Shown here piece after piece: positions 1-42,522 of a stretch of DNA of 42,522 nucleotides (positions are counted from its first letter, which is position 1; each line of letters opens with the position of its first letter). A model generated the notes under the pieces. The model was given only the letters and a program-made list of their open reading frames with translations, did not search any database and had not been told where the DNA came from. The stretch comes from a virus, in IMG/VR virus record IMGVR_UViG_3300034355_000787, positions 1-42,522 of that record. One strand, given 5' to 3'. The translations under genes and the position numbers were made by a program.

Positions 1-62
1 GGGGCCGGGGCTGGGGCTCGGGCGATGGATCGGGCCATGGCGATGGATCGGGATCGGGCTAA
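1..62 (+). CDS. 3' end of Gly-rich repeat protein (partial, copy of 42396-42457)
   Basis: The first 62 bases carry the last 20 codons of a Gly-X repeat gene, ending GDGSGSG and TAA at 60-62. They are identical to the end of the gene at 42176-42457, because bases 1-127 repeat the right end of the window. This is the same gene seen twice, not a second gene. Apart from those shared bases there is no start codon or upstream part here. Confidence 0.9.
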   Translation, partial: GRGWGSGDGSGHGDGSGSG

Positions 63-127
63 TTTAAAAATTTGAATTAGGCATACGGTTATTAAAAATG
101 TTATTAAAAATAAATTTGGGGTTTAAA
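1..127. repeat. 127-bp terminal direct repeat (left copy)
   Basis: Bases 1-127 are identical to 42396-42522. An exact end overlap of this size shows that the sequence closes into a circle of 42,395 bp. 127 is a k-mer size used by common short-read assemblers, so I read it as an assembly overlap rather than a biological terminal redundancy. The genome may be circularly permuted or truly circular in the cell. Confidence 0.95.
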
Positions 128-34117: not shown

Positions 34118-34429
34118 ATGAGTAAATTAAGCTATTTAATTGAGACAAAAGAGCGCTATCGAATCTGTGACGCCACAGGAAGCTTTACAATTTCCGTAAT
34201 CGAGAGCTCCGGTGGTGTACATTATGGCATGGAAACTCAAGGGGTGATGTCTCCAGGCTCACTGTCTAAATGCGTCGATTTATTGCGGGAGCTCATACAA
34301 ATTGATTGTTATAACTCGGTTGTACGGGCGGGTGAGAAAAAGGGTAGCATCAAGGTGGCCAAGAAAGTAACGGCTAGATTAGATAAGCTGTTGCAGCAAA
34401 GAGATTCGTTCACCCCCAAAGCAAAATAA
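34118..34429 (+). CDS. Unknown protein, last of the rightward operon
   Basis: This 103-residue protein has a beta-like N-terminal half (YRICDATGSFTISVIES) and a basic C-terminus. GAGGAG precedes the ATG. It is followed immediately by the hairpin at 34430-34452. No family is recognised. Confidence 0.55.
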   Translation: MSKLSYLIETKERYRICDATGSFTISVIESSGGVHYGMETQGVMSPGSLSKCVDLLRELIQIDCYNSVVRAGEKKGSIKVAKKVTARLDKLLQQRDSFTPKAK

Positions 34430-34452
34430 AGCCTAAGGTATCCCCTTAGGCT
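34430..34452 (+). terminator. Operon-end hairpin
   Basis: AGCCTAAGG-TATCC-CCTTAGGCT forms a 9-bp perfect stem starting one base after the last stop codon. There is no T-run, so it may stall rather than end transcription alone. Two more hairpins follow: GGCGA-ATAA-TCGCC (34455-34468) and ATTGCC/GGCAAT (34477-34498). Confidence 0.55.
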
Positions 34453-34575
34453 CCGGCGAATAATCGCCTAAAATCCATTGCCTAATATGGACGGCAATAG
34501 ATTAGCGAAGGTAACTTGACTAACCATTAAGTTAATAATAAGAACTATACAGAAATTTCGTACAAGAAGCAAGAG
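34453..34575. other. Convergent gap with further hairpins
   Basis: This gap lies between the rightward operon and the leftward DUF6378 gene. It contains the two hairpins at 34455-34468 and 34477-34498 directly after the operon-end hairpin, then AT-rich DNA without a reading frame. The serial hairpins may be the stable 3' end of an mRNA or a small RNA derived from it. Confidence 0.4.
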
Positions 34576-34953
34576 TCAAGAGGATATTTCTCTGACTAAT
34601 CTATCGGCACGTGTTTGTAGATGCCCGTCGCATGGCACACCAAAGCACTCAATGTTTATCGCACATGCTTTACAATGACCATTCTCGCGCTCCCCCTTCG
34701 CTAACATCGCATACCCTGCTATGTCGTCCCAGTGGTCTGCGTGGTTCGGGTCTCCGCAGACGATGCGGGCCATCTTGAGACAAATCATCTCTAAAGCAAG
34801 GAAATGCGTTGACTTTATAGGTTCAACGTCTAATCGGCGCATTTTCTTTATTTCGTCCTGCATAAATCTTAAAATTGTAGTATGAAATAAGGATACCGCC
34901 TCATAATCCCCGTGCGTCTTTTCGCGTTCGTTTAATATTTCTCTAGTATCCAC
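34576..34953 (-). CDS. DUF6378-type phage protein
   Basis: This 125-residue protein shows ILNEREKTHGDYEAVSLFH near the N-terminus, then FLALEMICLKMARIVCGDP and DHWDDIAGYAMLA, a pattern of a widespread phage protein family (DUF6378). The Glu and Asp residues at these motifs resemble all-alpha NTP pyrophosphohydrolases, but no activity is established to my knowledge. The start is GTG, 6 bases after GGAG. The C-terminal part adds a Cys-rich segment (CKACAINIECFG). Its 5' leader is the two-motif repeat array. Confidence 0.7.
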   Translation of the reverse strand: MDTREILNEREKTHGDYEAVSLFHTTILRFMQDEIKKMRRLDVEPIKSTHFLALEMICLKMARIVCGDPNHADHWDDIAGYAMLAKGERENGHCKACAINIECFGVPCDGHLQTRADRLVREISS

Positions 34954-34976
34954 TCATTACTCCTACAAGTTTATTT

Positions 34977-35317
34977 TGGTTTCTCATCTTTTACCTGGCT
35001 CGCAATATTATCTTGGTTTCTCATCTTGCTTGTGGCTCGCACACTTTTATGGTTTCTCATGCAAGTCTTGGCTCGCAAACTTATCATGGTTTCTCATCAA
35101 TCTCTTGGCTCGCAATCATGCACTGGTTTCTCATTCTTTGTGTGGCTCGCAAACTTATCGTGGTTTCTCATCCTGTGATTGGCTCGCAAAGTTTTAATGG
35201 TTTCTCATTATCTGTATGGCTCGCATTGCTGTTGTGGTTTCTCACTCCTAATTTGGCTCGCATTTTTTATCTGGTTCCTCAAGGCTACGTTGGCTCGCAA
35301 ATGTTTATGGTTTCTCA
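34977..35317 (-). repeat. Alternating two-motif array, period 37 bp
   Basis: Ten copies of motif A (plus strand TGGTTTCTCA, one copy TGGTTCCTCA) alternate strictly with nine copies of motif B (TGGCTCGCA). Between them are unique spacers of 9 bases (two of 8). A starts at 34977, 35014, 35050, 35087, 35124, 35161, 35198, 35235, 35272 and 35308; B starts at 34996, 35033, 35069, 35106, 35143, 35180, 35217, 35254 and 35291. On the minus strand, the direction of local transcription, they read TGAGAAACCA and TGCGAGCCA. The rightmost A contains the stop codon of the IS110-type gene. It is not a CRISPR: the repeats are too short and of two kinds. A function as iterons, protein-binding array or RNA array is open. 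Confidence 0.9.
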
Positions 35318-36133
35318 TTTCTCTTTTGGCTTAATCTCATGCGCATGACCCAATATCGCTATAGCATATGGTTTTGGGGGTGTTATACCTTTTATCCTTA
35401 GCGACATCTCCCAAAAATGCGATAAAAATATTTTAGCTGCATATCGCTCCGCCATTGCTTGTATATGTGCCGGCGGTAATTTACCTGCGCTATAATGCTT
35501 AAATGCGTCCGTATCTTTGCTATATTTTTTGTCTATTAAACATTGTGCCGCGCGGCCGGCATAGTCCCCGTTTTCGTTTTTAGCTACGTAATATGACTTT
35601 TTTTCTCTGTACAAATGCCCATACAATGCCGCCTCATTCCCGGATACTTTAACAAAAGATTGACCGATAAGCCATGCTAAACGTTTAAGGCTGCTTGACC
35701 AATTCGATTTTTCGCCTCGCTTACGCTTTTGGCCCGGTACGAGTCCGCAATATGACCACAGGTCGCCGCAAGACGCAAAACGCGTCGCATCACCTATATT
35801 CGCGCATAATCCGGCCGATAGCACGGGCCCAATTCCCACATTGGATTTAGCCCACGCACCTGCAGGTTCTTGGTCTGTGTATTTATCCAAAGCGCGCTTA
35901 ATCTGACTTTCTAATGTTTCCGACTGCTCGGCAGCCCAGTTAATAACGCTATGTGGCTCCTCCGTCTCGTTTAGCGCCCGCACTTGTCCATAGCTTCTGA
36001 TACGATTGTCTTGCATTTGATAATACAAGTCTACAAGATAACGCGCTTCTTTGTGTGACAAAGTTTTAGACGCATTAGCTAAATCTCGAGTCAGCTTAAT
36101 AACCGGCTCTAATCCAATTTCGAATTCTAACAT
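35315..36133 (-). CDS. Lone IS110-type C-terminal (Transposase_20) domain protein
   Basis: This 272-residue protein has a charged helical N-terminus and a Transposase_20-like domain at about 97-165: VGIGPVLSAGLCANIGD, then FASCGDLWSYCGLVPGQ and LKRLAWLIGQ. In IS110 transposases this domain follows an N-terminal DEDD RuvC-like nuclease; that nuclease is missing here. The segment that usually carries the catalytic Ser is basic (GQKRKRGEKSNWSSS) and not clearly conserved. It may be a DNA- or RNA-binding relative without recombinase activity. It lies between the replication-type gene and the 37-bp array, and its stop codon is inside the array. Confidence 0.75.
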   Translation of the reverse strand: MLEFEIGLEPVIKLTRDLANASKTLSHKEARYLVDLYYQMQDNRIRSYGQVRALNETEEPHSVINWAAEQSETLESQIKRALDKYTDQEPAGAWAKSNVGIGPVLSAGLCANIGDATRFASCGDLWSYCGLVPGQKRKRGEKSNWSSSLKRLAWLIGQSFVKVSGNEAALYGHLYREKKSYYVAKNENGDYAGRAAQCLIDKKYSKDTDAFKHYSAGKLPPAHIQAMAERYAAKIFLSHFWEMSLRIKGITPPKPYAIAILGHAHEIKPKEK

Positions 36134-36358
36134 TTATTCCCCTTTAATTTTTATACCCAGAAATTTTGCCATAACATCCTCATGGCCCGAAAACTCTTTT
36201 GCGCCTGCCTCAATAATTACATGCAGCTTGCTCTGTATAATCGGGTTTGTATAACGGCTTTTAGCAACCGGTATCGGGGGTGGTTTAAACGCCGCCGCAG
36301 CCATTTTCCCTCGCGCTCCAAAACCAAAATCATCGTCATCATGTTGCCAAGCCATCAT
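36134..36358 (-). CDS. Small protein between the replication-type and IS110-type genes
   Basis: This 74-residue protein starts MMAWQHDDDDFGFGARG and continues AAAFKPPPIPVAKSRY. It overlaps the stop of the upstream gene (GGGGGTGCATGATGA), so either of the first two ATGs may be used. The acidic patch and Pro-rich linker suggest an adaptor for a replication complex, but no family is recognised. It is one base from the start of the IS110-type gene. Confidence 0.55.
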   Translation of the reverse strand: MMAWQHDDDDFGFGARGKMAAAAFKPPPIPVAKSRYTNPIIQSKLHVIIEAGAKEFSGHEDVMAKFLGIKIKGE

Positions 36359-37623
36359 GCACCCCCGTATCTCGCTATCTCCCAGCGTCGCTGTAAATCC
36401 TCAAGCTTGCGCCTGCGCTCTGCATCTTGCACATCAACCTCAATGGCCGCAGGGGGCTCATAAACGGCATCAGGGACGTCAATACCAAGTTCTGGCGGTA
36501 TCTCTCCCCGAGCCTGCAAGCGGGCCAGCTGTGCGCCTGATTTTAGCTCGTAATGCTTCTTCTCACGCGCCTTAAGCTGCAAGTAGCCGTCTTTGCATTC
36601 ATCGCTGTACTTTTCATAACCAAACGGCATGCGCCACCCCCCAGATCGGATTAAAAGCATGAATCTATTCACAGCATGCTTAAAATTCTGCGTGCCTTGC
36701 CGATGTTCTGGGGTTGATAAGGCAAAATGTACTTGTGACCACAGCGTTTTGATATCGCCCACAGCCACTTTTGCTTTCAAAACTGTCCGCTCAACCGCGG
36801 CTTTTGCATATGCTAATTGTCTTTTGTTCAATTTAGATTCATCTTGATTAAAATTAACATCACCCCCGGTATTTTCTAAATAATCTACATTATTTGTATT
36901 ATTATTTATAATTTCTACCGTATTAATATCTCTATTATTAATGGATGTGGTCAAAATCGTCCGTTTATGCGATTTAATAGTTTCTTTTTTATGCTTTGCT
37001 TCATGCTCTATCCTCTCCCATTCCGCCATCAATTCATCATACTTTGCACTATTTATGGTCACATAGTGTCTTAGATGCCTGGGCGTTCTAACGATCAACC
37101 CTTTTTGCTCTAAAGCAATTACGATTGCATACGCCCCCTTCAGCGTCAGCCCTAATAAATTAGCCAGCTCTAGCTTAGGCACACTACACCATCCTTTCTG
37201 AGCGTTAGGTTTCCCTAGCGAAATCATATAAGCAAAATAAGAAAGTGCTACGCTCGCCTTGTTGCCGCCTGTGTAACTGTTCAAAAATTGTAACTTTCTT
37301 ATGTTAACGCTAAATTTTATATCTTCTTTACACCGAACAAACATTCGCTTCTTTCCGTACCACATGCCGAGCACCGTTTGTATTAATGACATACTCTTAA
37401 GTTGCTCCAACTTTCTATCAATGCTCTTTAAGCTACAGTTCAGATAATTGGCTAATTGCCGCCTAGTCCTTGCTATAACCCTGTCCGCACCTCTGACTAT
37501 TTTAGTATTGCTTACTTGATACTTAATAGCGCCGAAAAGAAGACTAGCGTCTATATCCCCGACCACGTCATTGACTACAGCTAACTGTTTAAAATTCACA
37601 AAACAAAATCCCTGAAAACTCAT
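36355..37623 (-). CDS. Winged-helix replication-initiator-type protein
   Basis: This 422-residue protein has two winged-helix-like segments: RTRRQLANYLNCSLKSIDRK (about 51-70) and SVPKLELANLLGLTLKGAYA (about 146-165). The second is followed by a wing with VRTPRHLRHYVTI. A polar Asn-rich linker and a helical C-terminal half follow. The architecture resembles plasmid and phage replication initiators (RepA or O-like), but I cannot name a family. GGGAG precedes the ATG. It heads the leftward replication segment. Confidence 0.6.
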   Translation of the reverse strand: MSFQGFCFVNFKQLAVVNDVVGDIDASLLFGAIKYQVSNTKIVRGADRVIARTRRQLANYLNCSLKSIDRKLEQLKSMSLIQTVLGMWYGKKRMFVRCKEDIKFSVNIRKLQFLNSYTGGNKASVALSYFAYMISLGKPNAQKGWCSVPKLELANLLGLTLKGAYAIVIALEQKGLIVRTPRHLRHYVTINSAKYDELMAEWERIEHEAKHKKETIKSHKRTILTTSINNRDINTVEIINNNTNNVDYLENTGGDVNFNQDESKLNKRQLAYAKAAVERTVLKAKVAVGDIKTLWSQVHFALSTPEHRQGTQNFKHAVNRFMLLIRSGGWRMPFGYEKYSDECKDGYLQLKAREKKHYELKSGAQLARLQARGEIPPELGIDVPDAVYEPPAAIEVDVQDAERRRKLEDLQRRWEIARYGGA

Positions 37624-38106: not shown

Positions 38107-38135
38107 TTGACAAATATTTAAATGAGCGTTATAAT
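38107..38135 (+). promoter_or_regulatory. Consensus early rightward promoter
   Basis: TTGACA (38107-38112) and TATAAT (38130-38135) are exactly 17 bases apart, a perfect sigma70 promoter. TGTACAG follows at about 38140-38146 and CGTACAGG precedes at about 38074, sharing TACAG; these may be operator half-sites. It drives the long early operon that crosses the circle junction. Confidence 0.8.
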
Positions 38136-40302: not shown

Positions 40303-40614
40303 ATGAATAATTTTTGCAAAGTGTTTGGGAAAAGAATTGGCTCGGGCGCGGGCTATGGCTATGGCTCCGGCGACGGCTATAGCTATGGGTCCGGCGACGG
40401 CTCCGGCGATGGCTCAGGCTCCGGCTACAGCTATGGCGCCGGCTCCGGCGATGGCGATTGCTCCAGCTTGGGCTCCGGCGACGGCGATGGCGATGGGTCC
40501 GGCTGGGGCAAAGGCTATGGCGCGGGCGCTGGCTCCAGCTTGGGCTCCGGCCACGGCGCGGGCAACGGCGATGGCTCGGGCTATGGCTCAGACGATGGAT
40601 CCGGCCATGGATAA
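40303..40614 (+). CDS. Gly-X repeat protein, copy 1
   Basis: This 103-residue protein starts MNNFCKVFGKRIGSG and then alternates Gly with S, D, Y, A, W, N, C, K, L or H to the end (GSGHG). The head sequence recurs in four other genes at 41039, 41280, 41809 and 42176, which fixes the true frame although the other frames are also open. The DNA is an about hexameric GGC-NNN repeat, far GC-richer than the genome. Function unknown: Gly-rich alternation suggests flexible or condensate-forming protein, but this is inference. Confidence 0.65.
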   Translation: MNNFCKVFGKRIGSGAGYGYGSGDGYSYGSGDGSGDGSGSGYSYGAGSGDGDCSSLGSGDGDGDGSGWGKGYGAGAGSSLGSGHGAGNGDGSGYGSDDGSGHG

Positions 40615-40644
40615 GTGTGTTTTTATTAACAATTGGAGACAGAA

Positions 40645-41046
40645 ATGAAAGAAAATGAAATAGTAATTAATGGCGTAAAATATATAAAGCAAAATCAAGA
40701 GTTGACTGCAAATAGTATATACTCAAATTTTATAGGCGAGTATTGCATTGTTCGCAGCTATGGCGCTGGTGTGTTTTTTGGCGTGCTAAATGCAGTCGAA
40801 GATAACTATGCAGCTATATTATCGGACGCTAGACGCATACATTATTGGGATGATCATACAGCGGCGGCATGTACAGATTTAGCTTTATATGGCATCACCG
40901 AAAAGTCTAATTCGAGCAAAAGCAGCCGCGTTTGTGCAGCTGTCGACAACCAAGTTTTAATGCAAGTTATAGAAATTATCCCGTGTTCAAAAACAGCAAT
41001 TAACTGCCTGAGAAATTTTAGAGTTTGGACAGAAGGCCGTGAATAA
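40645..41046 (+). CDS. DUF6948-type protein
   Basis: This 133-residue protein contains GEYCIVRSYGAGVFFGVL (about 31-48), ILSDARRIHYWDD (63-75) and a C-terminal IEIIPCSKTAINCL, the pattern of a widespread small phage protein family (DUF6948) of unknown function. GGAG lies 6 bases before the ATG at 40645. It sits between Gly-X copies 1 and 2 and its end overlaps the GTG of copy 2. Confidence 0.75.
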   Translation: MKENEIVINGVKYIKQNQELTANSIYSNFIGEYCIVRSYGAGVFFGVLNAVEDNYAAILSDARRIHYWDDHTAAACTDLALYGITEKSNSSKSSRVCAAVDNQVLMQVIEIIPCSKTAINCLRNFRVWTEGRE

Positions 41047-41272
41047 TTTTTGCAAAGTGTTTGGCAAAAACATTGGCTATGGCTCGGGATCGGGCTGGGG
41101 CTCGGGCGCGGGCGATGGCTCCGGCTATGGCGCCGGCTATGGCTATGGCTCGGGCGCGGGCAAAGGCTCGGGCGACGGCTCGGGCTATGGCTCGGGCTAT
41201 GGCTCGGGATCGGGCTGGGGCTCGGGCGCGGGCGATGGCTCCGGCTCCGGCGATGGCTCCGGCCATGGATAA
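41039..41272 (+). CDS. Gly-X repeat protein, copy 2
   Basis: This 77-residue protein starts at GTG with VNNFCKVFGKNIGYG and continues as Gly-X repeats to GSGHG. The GTG lies in GAAGGCCGTGAA, a context repeated before copies 3 and 5. The start overlaps the DUF6948 stop by 8 bases. Segments of this copy are repeated within itself (GDGSGYG and GSGSGWGSGAG blocks), indicating internal duplication. Confidence 0.6.
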   Translation: MNNFCKVFGKNIGYGSGSGWGSGAGDGSGYGAGYGYGSGAGKGSGDGSGYGSGYGSGSGWGSGAGDGSGSGDGSGHG

Positions 41273-41279
41273 GAAGGCC

Positions 41280-41345
41280 GTGAATAATTTTTGCAAAGTG
41301 TTTGGGAGAGAAATTGGATCCGCCCCCAGATGGGGCGAAAATTAA
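41280..41345 (+). CDS. Truncated Gly-X cassette, copy 3 (head only, 21 aa)
   Basis: The same GTG context starts VNNFCKVFGREIGSAPRWGEN, then TAA. The head module is intact but the repeat is missing. Either it is a decayed copy or it shows that the head alone is kept as a unit. It starts 7 bases after the stop of copy 2. Confidence 0.45.
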   Translation: MNNFCKVFGREIGSAPRWGEN

Positions 41346-41367
41346 AGTAAAAAATTAAGGGGAAAAA

Positions 41368-41793
41368 ATGTCTGGCGTAAATAAAGCAATTTTATTGGGC
41401 AACATCGGGAAAGACCCCGAAATAAGGACTTTTCAAGACGGCGATCGAGTTGCTAACTTTAGCTTAGCGACATCGACCAAATGGAAGGATAAAGTTACGG
41501 GTGAGCAAAAAGAAGCGGTGGAATGGCACAATATAAGCGCTTTTGGTAAATTGGCTGCTATCTGCGAGCAATACCTTAATAAAGGTGACAAAGTATATAT
41601 TGAGGGTCATATAAAAACTGAAAAATATACCGATAAAGAAGGCGTTGTTAGATATAGCACTAAAATTATTATGGACAATATGCAAATGCTATCGAGTTTT
41701 AAAGGAGATGTGCGCTCAGATGGGGAAGATTCCACATTGCCGTCAAGCTCTAAGCTTTCCACTAATACCTTTGATGACGATATACCATTTTAG
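41368..41793 (+). CDS. ssb: Single-stranded DNA-binding protein
   Basis: This 141-residue protein has the SSB OB fold: VNKAILLGNIGKDPEIRTF, VANFSLATST, VEWHNISAFGKLA, YLNKGDKVYIEGHIKT, and the acidic tip DDDIPF used to recruit partners. AAGGGG precedes the ATG. It lies between Gly-X copies 3 and 4 and would serve with RecT in replication and recombination. Confidence 0.95.
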   Translation: MSGVNKAILLGNIGKDPEIRTFQDGDRVANFSLATSTKWKDKVTGEQKEAVEWHNISAFGKLAAICEQYLNKGDKVYIEGHIKTEKYTDKEGVVRYSTKIIMDNMQMLSSFKGDVRSDGEDSTLPSSSKLSTNTFDDDIPF

Positions 41794-41808
41794 GGGATGG
41801 AAAAAGAA

Positions 41809-42168
41809 ATGAATAATTTTTGTAAAGTGTTTGGGAAAAGAATTGGCTCTGGCAACTGCGATGGCTCGGGCTACAGCTATGGCGCCGGCGATGGCGATGG
41901 TGCGGGCTTTGGCTGGGGCTCGGGCGATGGCTCGGGCGACGGCTCGGGCTGGGGCGCCGGCGATGGCTATGGCTCCGGCGCGGGCAAAGGCGCGGGCTAT
42001 GGCTATGGCGCGGGCTCGGGCGACGGCTCGGGCTATGGCGCCGGCGATGGCTATGGCTCCGGCGCGGGCAAAGGCGCGGGCTATGGCTCGGGCGCGGGCA
42101 AAGGCGCGGGCTATGGCGCCGGCTATGGCTATGGCTCCGGCTCCGGCGATGGCTCCGGCCATGGATAA
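41809..42168 (+). CDS. Gly-X repeat protein, copy 4
   Basis: This 119-residue protein starts MNNFCKVFGKRIGSG, then GNCDGSGYSYGAG, and alternates Gly-X to GSGHG. GGA lies about 7 bases before this ATG; an ATG 12 bases further up would add MEKE. Its first approximately 80 bases are identical to copy 5, so one arose recently from the other. Internal repeats such as GYGYGAGSGDGSGYG occur. Confidence 0.65.
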   Translation: MNNFCKVFGKRIGSGNCDGSGYSYGAGDGDGAGFGWGSGDGSGDGSGWGAGDGYGSGAGKGAGYGYGAGSGDGSGYGAGDGYGSGAGKGAGYGSGAGKGAGYGAGYGYGSGSGDGSGHG

Positions 42169-42175
42169 GAAGGCC

Positions 42176-42457
42176 GTGAATAATTTTTGTAAAGTGTTTG
42201 GGAAAAGAATTGGCTCTGGCAACTGCGATGGCTCGGGCTACAGCTATGGCGCCGGCGCCGGCGATGGCGATGGTGCGGGCGATGGCGCGGGCAATGGCTC
42301 CGGCCACGGCGCGGGCAACGGCGACGGCTCGGGCAACGGCTCCGGCTACGGCTCGGGCGCCGGATCGGGATCGGGATGGGGCAACGGCTCAGGCTGGGGC
42401 CGGGGCTGGGGCTCGGGCGATGGATCGGGCCATGGCGATGGATCGGGATCGGGCTAA
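42176..42457 (+). CDS. Gly-X repeat protein, copy 5
   Basis: This 93-residue protein starts at GTG (GAAGGCCGTGAA context) with VNNFCKVFGKRIGSG and ends GSGHGDGSGSG. It starts 7 bases after the stop of copy 4. The end extends beyond the GSGHG seen in the other copies. Its 3' end is duplicated at the left edge of the window because the map is circular. Confidence 0.65.
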   Translation: MNNFCKVFGKRIGSGNCDGSGYSYGAGAGDGDGAGDGAGNGSGHGAGNGDGSGNGSGYGSGAGSGSGWGNGSGWGRGWGSGDGSGHGDGSGSG

Positions 42458-42522
42458 TTTAAAAATTTGAATTAGGCATACGGTTATTAAAAATGTTATT
42501 AAAAATAAATTTGGGGTTTAAA
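42396..42522. repeat. 127-bp terminal direct repeat (right copy)
   Basis: Identical to 1-127. It contains the end of Gly-X copy 5, the AT-rich leader, and GGGG as ribosome site of the gene at 128. Removing one copy gives the circular map. Confidence 0.95.

What the first reader, a model, noticed from the sequence alone, without database searches (positions are those of the whole stretch)
34977..35340. Strict two-motif array (A-N9-B-N9)x9 beside a lone IS110-type domain protein
Ten 10-bp A motifs and nine 9-bp B motifs alternate with almost constant 9-base spacers whose sequence is not conserved (only AACTTATCA and AACTTATCG look alike). A partly matching tenth B (TGGCTTAAT) overlaps the end of the IS110-type gene. 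Minus-strand A (TGAGAAACCA) and B (TGCGAGCCA) resemble each other, so the basic unit may be an about 18.5-bp TGnGAnnCCA. 18.5 bp is close to 1.75 helix turns and 37 bp to 3.5 turns, so successive A motifs fall on opposite DNA faces. The array fills the whole gap between two leftward genes. It could be iterons for the replication-type protein, a nucleoprotein array bound by the IS110-type protein, or an RNA whose short unique spacers act as guides. IS110 enzymes are known to use a bridge RNA with short guide segments, which makes the pairing interesting, but nothing here proves guidance.
Basis: partly seen in the sequence, partly recalled or inferred. Interest (0 to 1): 0.85.

Follow-up and report, generated by a model that had tools for sequence, protein, structure and literature searches.

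The report
Phage TIGR-Tas guide-RNA array
A phage genome carries a TIGR-Tas locus, a recently discovered CRISPR-like system in which an array of ten paired 9-letter guides steers a small IS110-related protein to DNA; this copy has no cutting domain, and what it targets is not known.

Summary
The array is real. Read on the minus strand, as RNA, it is nine edge repeats (UGCGAGCCA) alternating with ten loop repeats (UGAGAAACCA), separated by 18 spacers of 9 nt and two of 8 nt. It starts with a 5'-truncated edge inside the end of the neighbouring gene and ends with a 3'-truncated edge, which gives ten tigRNA units. The IS110-type gene is a Tas protein: NCBIfam TIGR_Tas_endo 201.5 bits (cut-off 100), solved TasR 1.9e-20, and the best Foldseek matches are TasR and TasH ahead of IS621. 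It is 272 aa, all helical, with no RuvC or HNH domain, so it is a TasA. This is the TIGR-Tas system of Faure et al. 2025 (PMC12045711). Dual-repeat arrays with different repeats lie beside relatives in other phages and in a Solibacteraceae MAG. Inferred mechanism: the array is co-transcribed with tasA and cut into about 37-nt guides; a TasA dimer opens an 18-bp target, each spacer pairing with one strand, without cutting. Targets are unknown: the phage's own genome has none, and viral searches gave nothing convincing. It is a new member of a known kind; what TasA does stays open.

The parts
34966..35335 (-). TIGR dual-repeat array, ten tigRNA units (5' end at 35335, 3' end at 34966)
   Evidence: anatomy matches PMC12045711
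35327..35335 (-). 5'-truncated edge repeat ATTAAGCCA, keeps box C (CCA); lies in the last codons of tasA
   Evidence: truncated first edge is a described TIGR feature
35308..35317 (-). first of ten loop repeats TGAGAAACCA (others end at 35272 [TGAGGAACCA], 35235, 35198, 35161, 35124, 35087, 35050, 35014, 34977); its TGA is the tasA stop codon
35291..35299 (-). first of nine full edge repeats TGCGAGCCA (others start at 35254, 35217, 35180, 35143, 35106, 35069, 35033, 34996)
34966..34967 (-). 3'-truncated edge repeat, box D only (TG), running into the ribosome-binding site of the next gene
   Evidence: truncated last edge is a described TIGR feature
35315..36133 (-). tasA: 272-aa Nop-type Tas protein without RuvC or HNH domain
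   Evidence: NF052498 201.5 bits, cut-off 100; PDB 9mty 1.9e-20; Foldseek TasR/TasH best, all-helical model
36134..36358 (-). 74-aa ORF of unknown function; its stop codon abuts the tasA start codon
   Evidence: no Pfam, PHROG or PADLOC match
36355..37623 (-). replication protein-like gene (DnaD-like helicase loader / O-like), upstream in the same direction, overlaps the 74-aa ORF by 4 bases
34576..34953 (-). DUF6378 gene directly downstream of the array
34428..34454 (-). terminator-like hairpin after the DUF6378 gene, possible end of the transcript that includes the array
   Evidence: consensus match only; 1 found against 3.7 expected in shuffles, so weak

Best explanation
This is a phage-encoded TIGR-Tas system of the nuclease-less TasA type with a dual-repeat array. 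Inferred working: the array is transcribed leftward with tasA; TasA dimers hold each UG...CCA repeat (box D / box C), and a host RNase cuts in the edge repeats to give about 37-nt tigRNAs (half edge - spacer A - loop - spacer B - half edge). The TasA dimer with one tigRNA opens a DNA site of the form 5'-spacerB-(0-2 bp)-reverse complement of spacerA-3', each 9-nt spacer pairing with a different strand. It bends and occupies the site without cutting it, acting as a programmable block on DNA that is probably not the phage's own. Shown here: array anatomy, protein family, absence of a nuclease fold, co-occurrence of dual-repeat arrays with Tas genes. Taken from PMC12045711 for other Tas proteins: processing and two-strand targeting. 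Inferred: that this copy is active, and what it blocks.
For: Array anatomy matches the published definition point by point: two alternating 8-12-nt repeats, 9-nt spacers, UG start and CCA end of both repeats, truncated outer edges, A-rich loop, array next to the Tas gene. Protein: NF052498 TIGR_Tas_endo 201.5 bits, cut-off 100; PDB 9mty TasR 1.9e-20; model pLDDT 82.4 matches TasR/TasH first. No beta strands in the model and no N-terminal domain, so no RuvC/HNH. Dual-repeat arrays with different repeats stand beside relatives L009, L020, L024, L016, L017. Array RNA is unstructured (z 0.29).
Against: No RNA or binding data. No target found. The TasA mechanism itself has not been shown experimentally in the paper; it is inferred from TasR/TasH. 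Two spacers are 8 nt. No terminator directly after the array. The first unit's edge and spacer A are also codons of tasA.
Confidence: 0.88

Rival explanations
1. Functional sub-hypothesis: the tigRNAs are aimed at competing mobile elements or phages, and TasA blocks their replication or transcription without cleavage (like type IV or V-M CRISPR), giving superinfection interference.
For: No targets in the phage's own genome; no nuclease domain; proposed for TasA by the discoverers. In another TasA phage (Morrissey) one guide matches 17 contiguous bases in two phages of the same host species.
Against: No convincing target for this array in viral contigs. The Morrissey match is near chance level for one guide, and other guides gave none. 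TasR gave no phage or conjugation defence in E. coli.
Confidence: 0.4
2. Functional sub-hypothesis: TasA regulates a host locus or assists integration or replication of the phage itself by RNA-guided DNA bending.
For: tasA lies in a replication gene cluster; TasR bends DNA by almost 180 degrees, and integration help was suggested.
Against: No self-targets; host unknown, so host targets untested.
Confidence: 0.25
3. Replication iterons bound by the neighbouring replication protein.
For: The replication-type gene is two genes away; the repeats are regular.
Against: Two alternating repeats with the TIGR box D/C signature; arrays with other repeats stand beside Tas-family genes in relatives with different neighbours; the first unit reaches into tasA, not into the replication gene.
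Confidence: 0.02
4. An IS110-type transposon with a bridge RNA, or a degenerate remnant of one.
For: Pfam Transposase_20 match 6.5e-7 over aa 99-137; shared ancestry of the Nop-type domain.
Against: IS110 equivalog model far below cut-off (36.8 against 140 bits). No DEDD catalytic domain: the model is all helix. IS621 is a worse structural match than TasR/TasH. An array of ten units is not a single bridge RNA.
Confidence: 0.01

Closest known systems
TIGR-TasA systems with dual-repeat arrays (e.g. Flavonifractor plautii FpTIGR; PMC12045711)
   Same: Solo Nop-type Tas protein without nuclease, adjacent array of alternating edge and loop repeats with 9-nt spacers, UG/CCA boxes, truncated outer edges
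   Different: Repeat and spacer sequences are its own; the array begins inside tasA; no terminator directly after the array; activity not shown
TIGR-TasR / TasH (TaTasR, PDB 9mty; Salicola phage CGphi29 TasH)
   Same: Homologous Nop-type core (1.9e-20 and 1.2e-7) and the same array logic
   Different: They carry RuvC or HNH nuclease domains and cut DNA; this protein lacks them
IS110/IS621 transposases with bridge RNA, and box C/D snoRNP Nop proteins
   Same: Distant relatives sharing the Nop-type RNA-binding fold (IS621; Nop5 only a weak match there, E 3.5)
   Different: IS110 has a DEDD transposase domain and one bridge RNA; snoRNPs guide RNA methylation

Membership tests
TIGR-Tas system | Array of two alternating 8-12-nt repeats with about 9-nt spacers | tested here: met
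   10-nt loop and 9-nt edge repeats, 18 spacers of 9 nt and 2 of 8 nt
TIGR-Tas system | Both repeats start with UG (box D) and end with CCA (box C) on the RNA strand (as in TasR arrays) | tested here: met
   UGCGAGCCA and UGAGAAACCA
TIGR-Tas system | 5'-truncated first edge and 3'-truncated last edge | tested here: met
   ATTAAGCCA at 35335-35327; TG at 34967-34966
TIGR-Tas system | Rho-independent terminator after the array (typical) | tested here: not met
   None directly after the array; the only candidate lies after the next gene. The paper calls this typical, not required
TIGR-Tas system | Adjacent Nop-domain Tas protein | tested here: met
   NF052498 201.5 bits, cut-off 100; TasR/TasH best in PDB by sequence and fold
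TIGR-Tas system | Array processed into 36-nt tigRNAs bound by Tas | not testable with these tools
   needs small-RNA sequencing
TIGR-Tas system | Tandem-spacer DNA binding | not testable with these tools
   needs binding assays; no natural target found
TasA subtype | Solo Nop-type protein without RuvC or HNH nuclease | tested here: met
   272 aa, homologous core from aa 75 against 154 in TasR, no beta strands in the model, no nuclease family hit
IS110 transposase | IS110 equivalog model above cut-off and a DEDD catalytic domain | tested here: not met
   36.8 bits against cut-off 140; all-helical model
Replication iterons | Single repeat bound by the replication protein and conserved with it | tested here: not met
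   Two alternating repeats; dual-repeat arrays follow Tas-family genes in relatives with different neighbours; binding itself not testable

The most novel reading that the evidence does not exclude
A nuclease-free TasA uses ten dual-spacer guides to hold and bend specific sites on competing phage DNA inside the host, a cleavage-free, programmable form of phage-against-phage exclusion. This would be the first natural function for TasA.
Probability: 0.3. Interest if true: 0.75.

Novelty: new member of a known kind. Interest (0 to 1): 0.38.

Why it matters
TIGR-Tas was described only in 2025; its natural targets, the role of the nuclease-less TasA and the origin of spacers are open (PMC12045711). 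This is a clean, complete phage TasA locus, probably in a complete genome (127-bp terminal direct repeat), with ten readable guides. Isolated, culturable actinophages carry relatives with stem-loop arrays, which makes the target question testable in ordinary laboratory strains.

Tried and rejected
Iterons and an IS110 element: rejected (see rivals). Self-targeting of the phage: best 2-4 mismatches, same as re-paired controls. Targets in 2.9 million viral contigs for three guides: unit 5 gave 2 hits; unit 6 gave 8 hits in 4 contexts; unit 3 gave 11 hits in 6 contexts, all at gap 0. Unit 3 looked promising, but the sites lie in unrelated genes, most of them where in-frame codons spell TATPN or LGVAV, and isolate phages gave only one Acinetobacter phage (two records, 16 of 18); the wrong-arrangement control gave 2. 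The unit 3 excess is therefore not fully explained, but I do not count it as a target. DNA search with the repeat pattern found one site in another contig, L011, about what chance gives. Relatives of the replication protein: none found, so the 'same operon without tas' test could not be made. Rfam: no match. PADLOC: no match for tasA. Spacer duplication: not significant.

Full report
Observation. The array is exactly as described and far beyond chance. Nine exact and one single-mismatch TGGTTTCTCA alternate with nine exact TGGCTCGCA between 34977 and 35317, and eight exact A-N9-B units occur against none in 100 shuffles. Read on the minus strand, the coding strand of the adjacent gene, the array is: ATTAAGCCA (truncated edge, 35335-35327), AAAGAGAAA, TGAGAAACCA, TAAACATT, TGCGAGCCA, ACGTAGCCT, TGAGGAACCA and so on down to TGAGAAACCA, AAATAAACT, TG (truncated edge, 34967-34966). 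That makes ten loop repeats, nine full edge repeats and twenty spacers, eighteen of 9 nt and two of 8 nt. The first edge and first spacer are codons of the neighbouring gene, and its stop codon TGA begins the first loop.

Identity of the protein. The specific NCBIfam model NF052498 TIGR_Tas_endo scores 201.5 bits against a cut-off of 100, whereas the IS110 equivalog scores 36.8 against 140. Sequence search of the PDB finds the TasR cryo-EM structure 9mty at 1.9e-20 and TasH at 1.2e-7, with IS621 only at 0.0014. An AlphaFold2 model (pLDDT 82.4, pTM 0.80) is all helical; its best Foldseek matches are TasR and TasH, then IS621. The homologous core starts at aa 75, against 154 in TasR, and no strands precede it, so the RuvC domain is absent and there is no HNH. 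It is a TasA. The word 'endonuclease' in the NCBIfam name should not be carried over.

What it is. Faure et al. 2025 (PMC12045711; [quoted passage not shown] Outer edges are truncated, and both repeats of TasR arrays start with UG (box D) and end with CCA (box C). In TasR arrays the edge carries an extra base pair and the loop is A-rich. All of these are met here: the edge is UG-C-GA-G-CCA and the loop UG-AGAAA-CCA. Only the typical terminator directly after the array is missing.

Relatives. The protein query found L009 and L010; the alignment search added L020, L022, L023 and a Solibacteraceae MAG, L024; these relatives are 34-50% identical in the alignment. L009 (both sides of the gene), L020 (both sides) and L024 carry dual-repeat arrays with repeats of their own. 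Microcystis phage Mvi-JY20 and the published Salicola TasH phage do too; the Mvi-JY20 edge, TGCGAGCC, is nearly that of this window. L010 and L022 have AT-rich tandem arrays of another type; L023 is unclear. All 12 records tested exceed the family cut-off. No dual-repeat array was seen away from a Tas-family gene, but the search was led by the gene, so orphan arrays are not excluded.

Likely mechanism. Established for other Tas proteins: Tas-dependent processing to 36-nt tigRNAs, and one Tas dimer with one tigRNA opening an 18-bp site, spacer A on one strand and spacer B on the other, no PAM, gaps of up to 2 bp tolerated. From the reported 8-nt 3' overhangs and the C-5 rule, the target reads 5'-spacerB-reverse complement of spacerA-3' (my derivation). 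By homology TasA here should bind and bend but not cut. The gene order replication protein, 74-aa ORF, tasA, array, DUF6378 on one strand, with overlapping or abutting reading frames for the first three, and a terminator-like hairpin at 34454-34428, suggests one early transcript that contains the array; this is inference. The array RNA shows no fold beyond shuffles (z 0.29).

Targets. None in the phage's own genome beyond re-paired controls. Three guides scanned through IMG/VR gave hits near chance or largely explained by codon runs. The spacers are 49% A against 28% for random 9-mers of this genome, and 21-33% in four relatives; this is unexplained. The function of TasA is therefore not settled here. 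Interference with other elements is favoured weakly, on the absence of self-targets and of a nuclease.

Side lead. Isolated actinophages annotated with 'transposase' or hypothetical proteins carry Tas-family genes with stem-loop arrays: stem, CCA, 9 nt, CGNNNCCCA, 9 nt, CG, stem; seven units in Gordonia phage Morrissey. Morrissey has no self-targets. One of its guides matches 17 contiguous bases in Gordonia terrae phages Dogfish and Ewald and nothing else in 50,697 phages. By my estimate about 0.5 such matches per guide are expected by chance over the collection; a second guide gave only scattered 16-base matches, and five others gave none (those combined queries reach only the longest exact matches). 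It is a hint only, but these phages and hosts are in culture.

Verdict. A real, complete new member of a known system, TIGR-TasA. Novelty is low; the value lies in the open question of what TasA does.

Noticed in passing
L012/L048 (Gordonia phage Morrissey), L013 (Mycobacterium phage Euphoria), L014 (Rich), L015 (Rhodococcus phage Peregrin): Isolated actinophages whose 'transposase' or hypothetical proteins are above the Tas family cut-off (L012, L013, L015 tested) carry stem-loop TIGR-like arrays (stem-CCA-9 nt-loop ending CCCA or similar-9 nt-CG-stem); seven units in Morrissey, one of them at the annotated start of its tas gene.
   Followed up: partly
L049 784-800 (Gordonia phage Dogfish gene 55; also phage Ewald): The predicted 18-bp target of one Morrissey guide matches 17 contiguous bases here and nowhere else in 50,697 phages; same host species, but near chance level for a single guide.
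   Followed up: partly
window 34966-35335: Spacers are strongly A-rich on the RNA strand (49% against 28% for random 9-mers of the genome, none of 20,000 samples as high; 21-33% in four relatives). No explanation found.
   Followed up: partly
window 40303-42470: Several ORFs that begin MNNFCKVFGK and continue as glycine-rich GSGYGAGDG-type repeats, separated by other genes.
   Followed up: no
window 1-127 and 42396-42522: 127-bp exact direct terminal repeat, so the contig is probably a complete circular or terminally redundant phage genome.
   Followed up: no
L009 1680-1850 and 2725-2960: A relative with arrays on both sides of its tas gene; the upstream array reads in the opposite direction to the gene.
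   Followed up: no
window 38107-38135: A perfect sigma-70 consensus promoter (TTGACA-17-TATAAT) on the plus strand upstream of the RecT-like gene.
   Followed up: no
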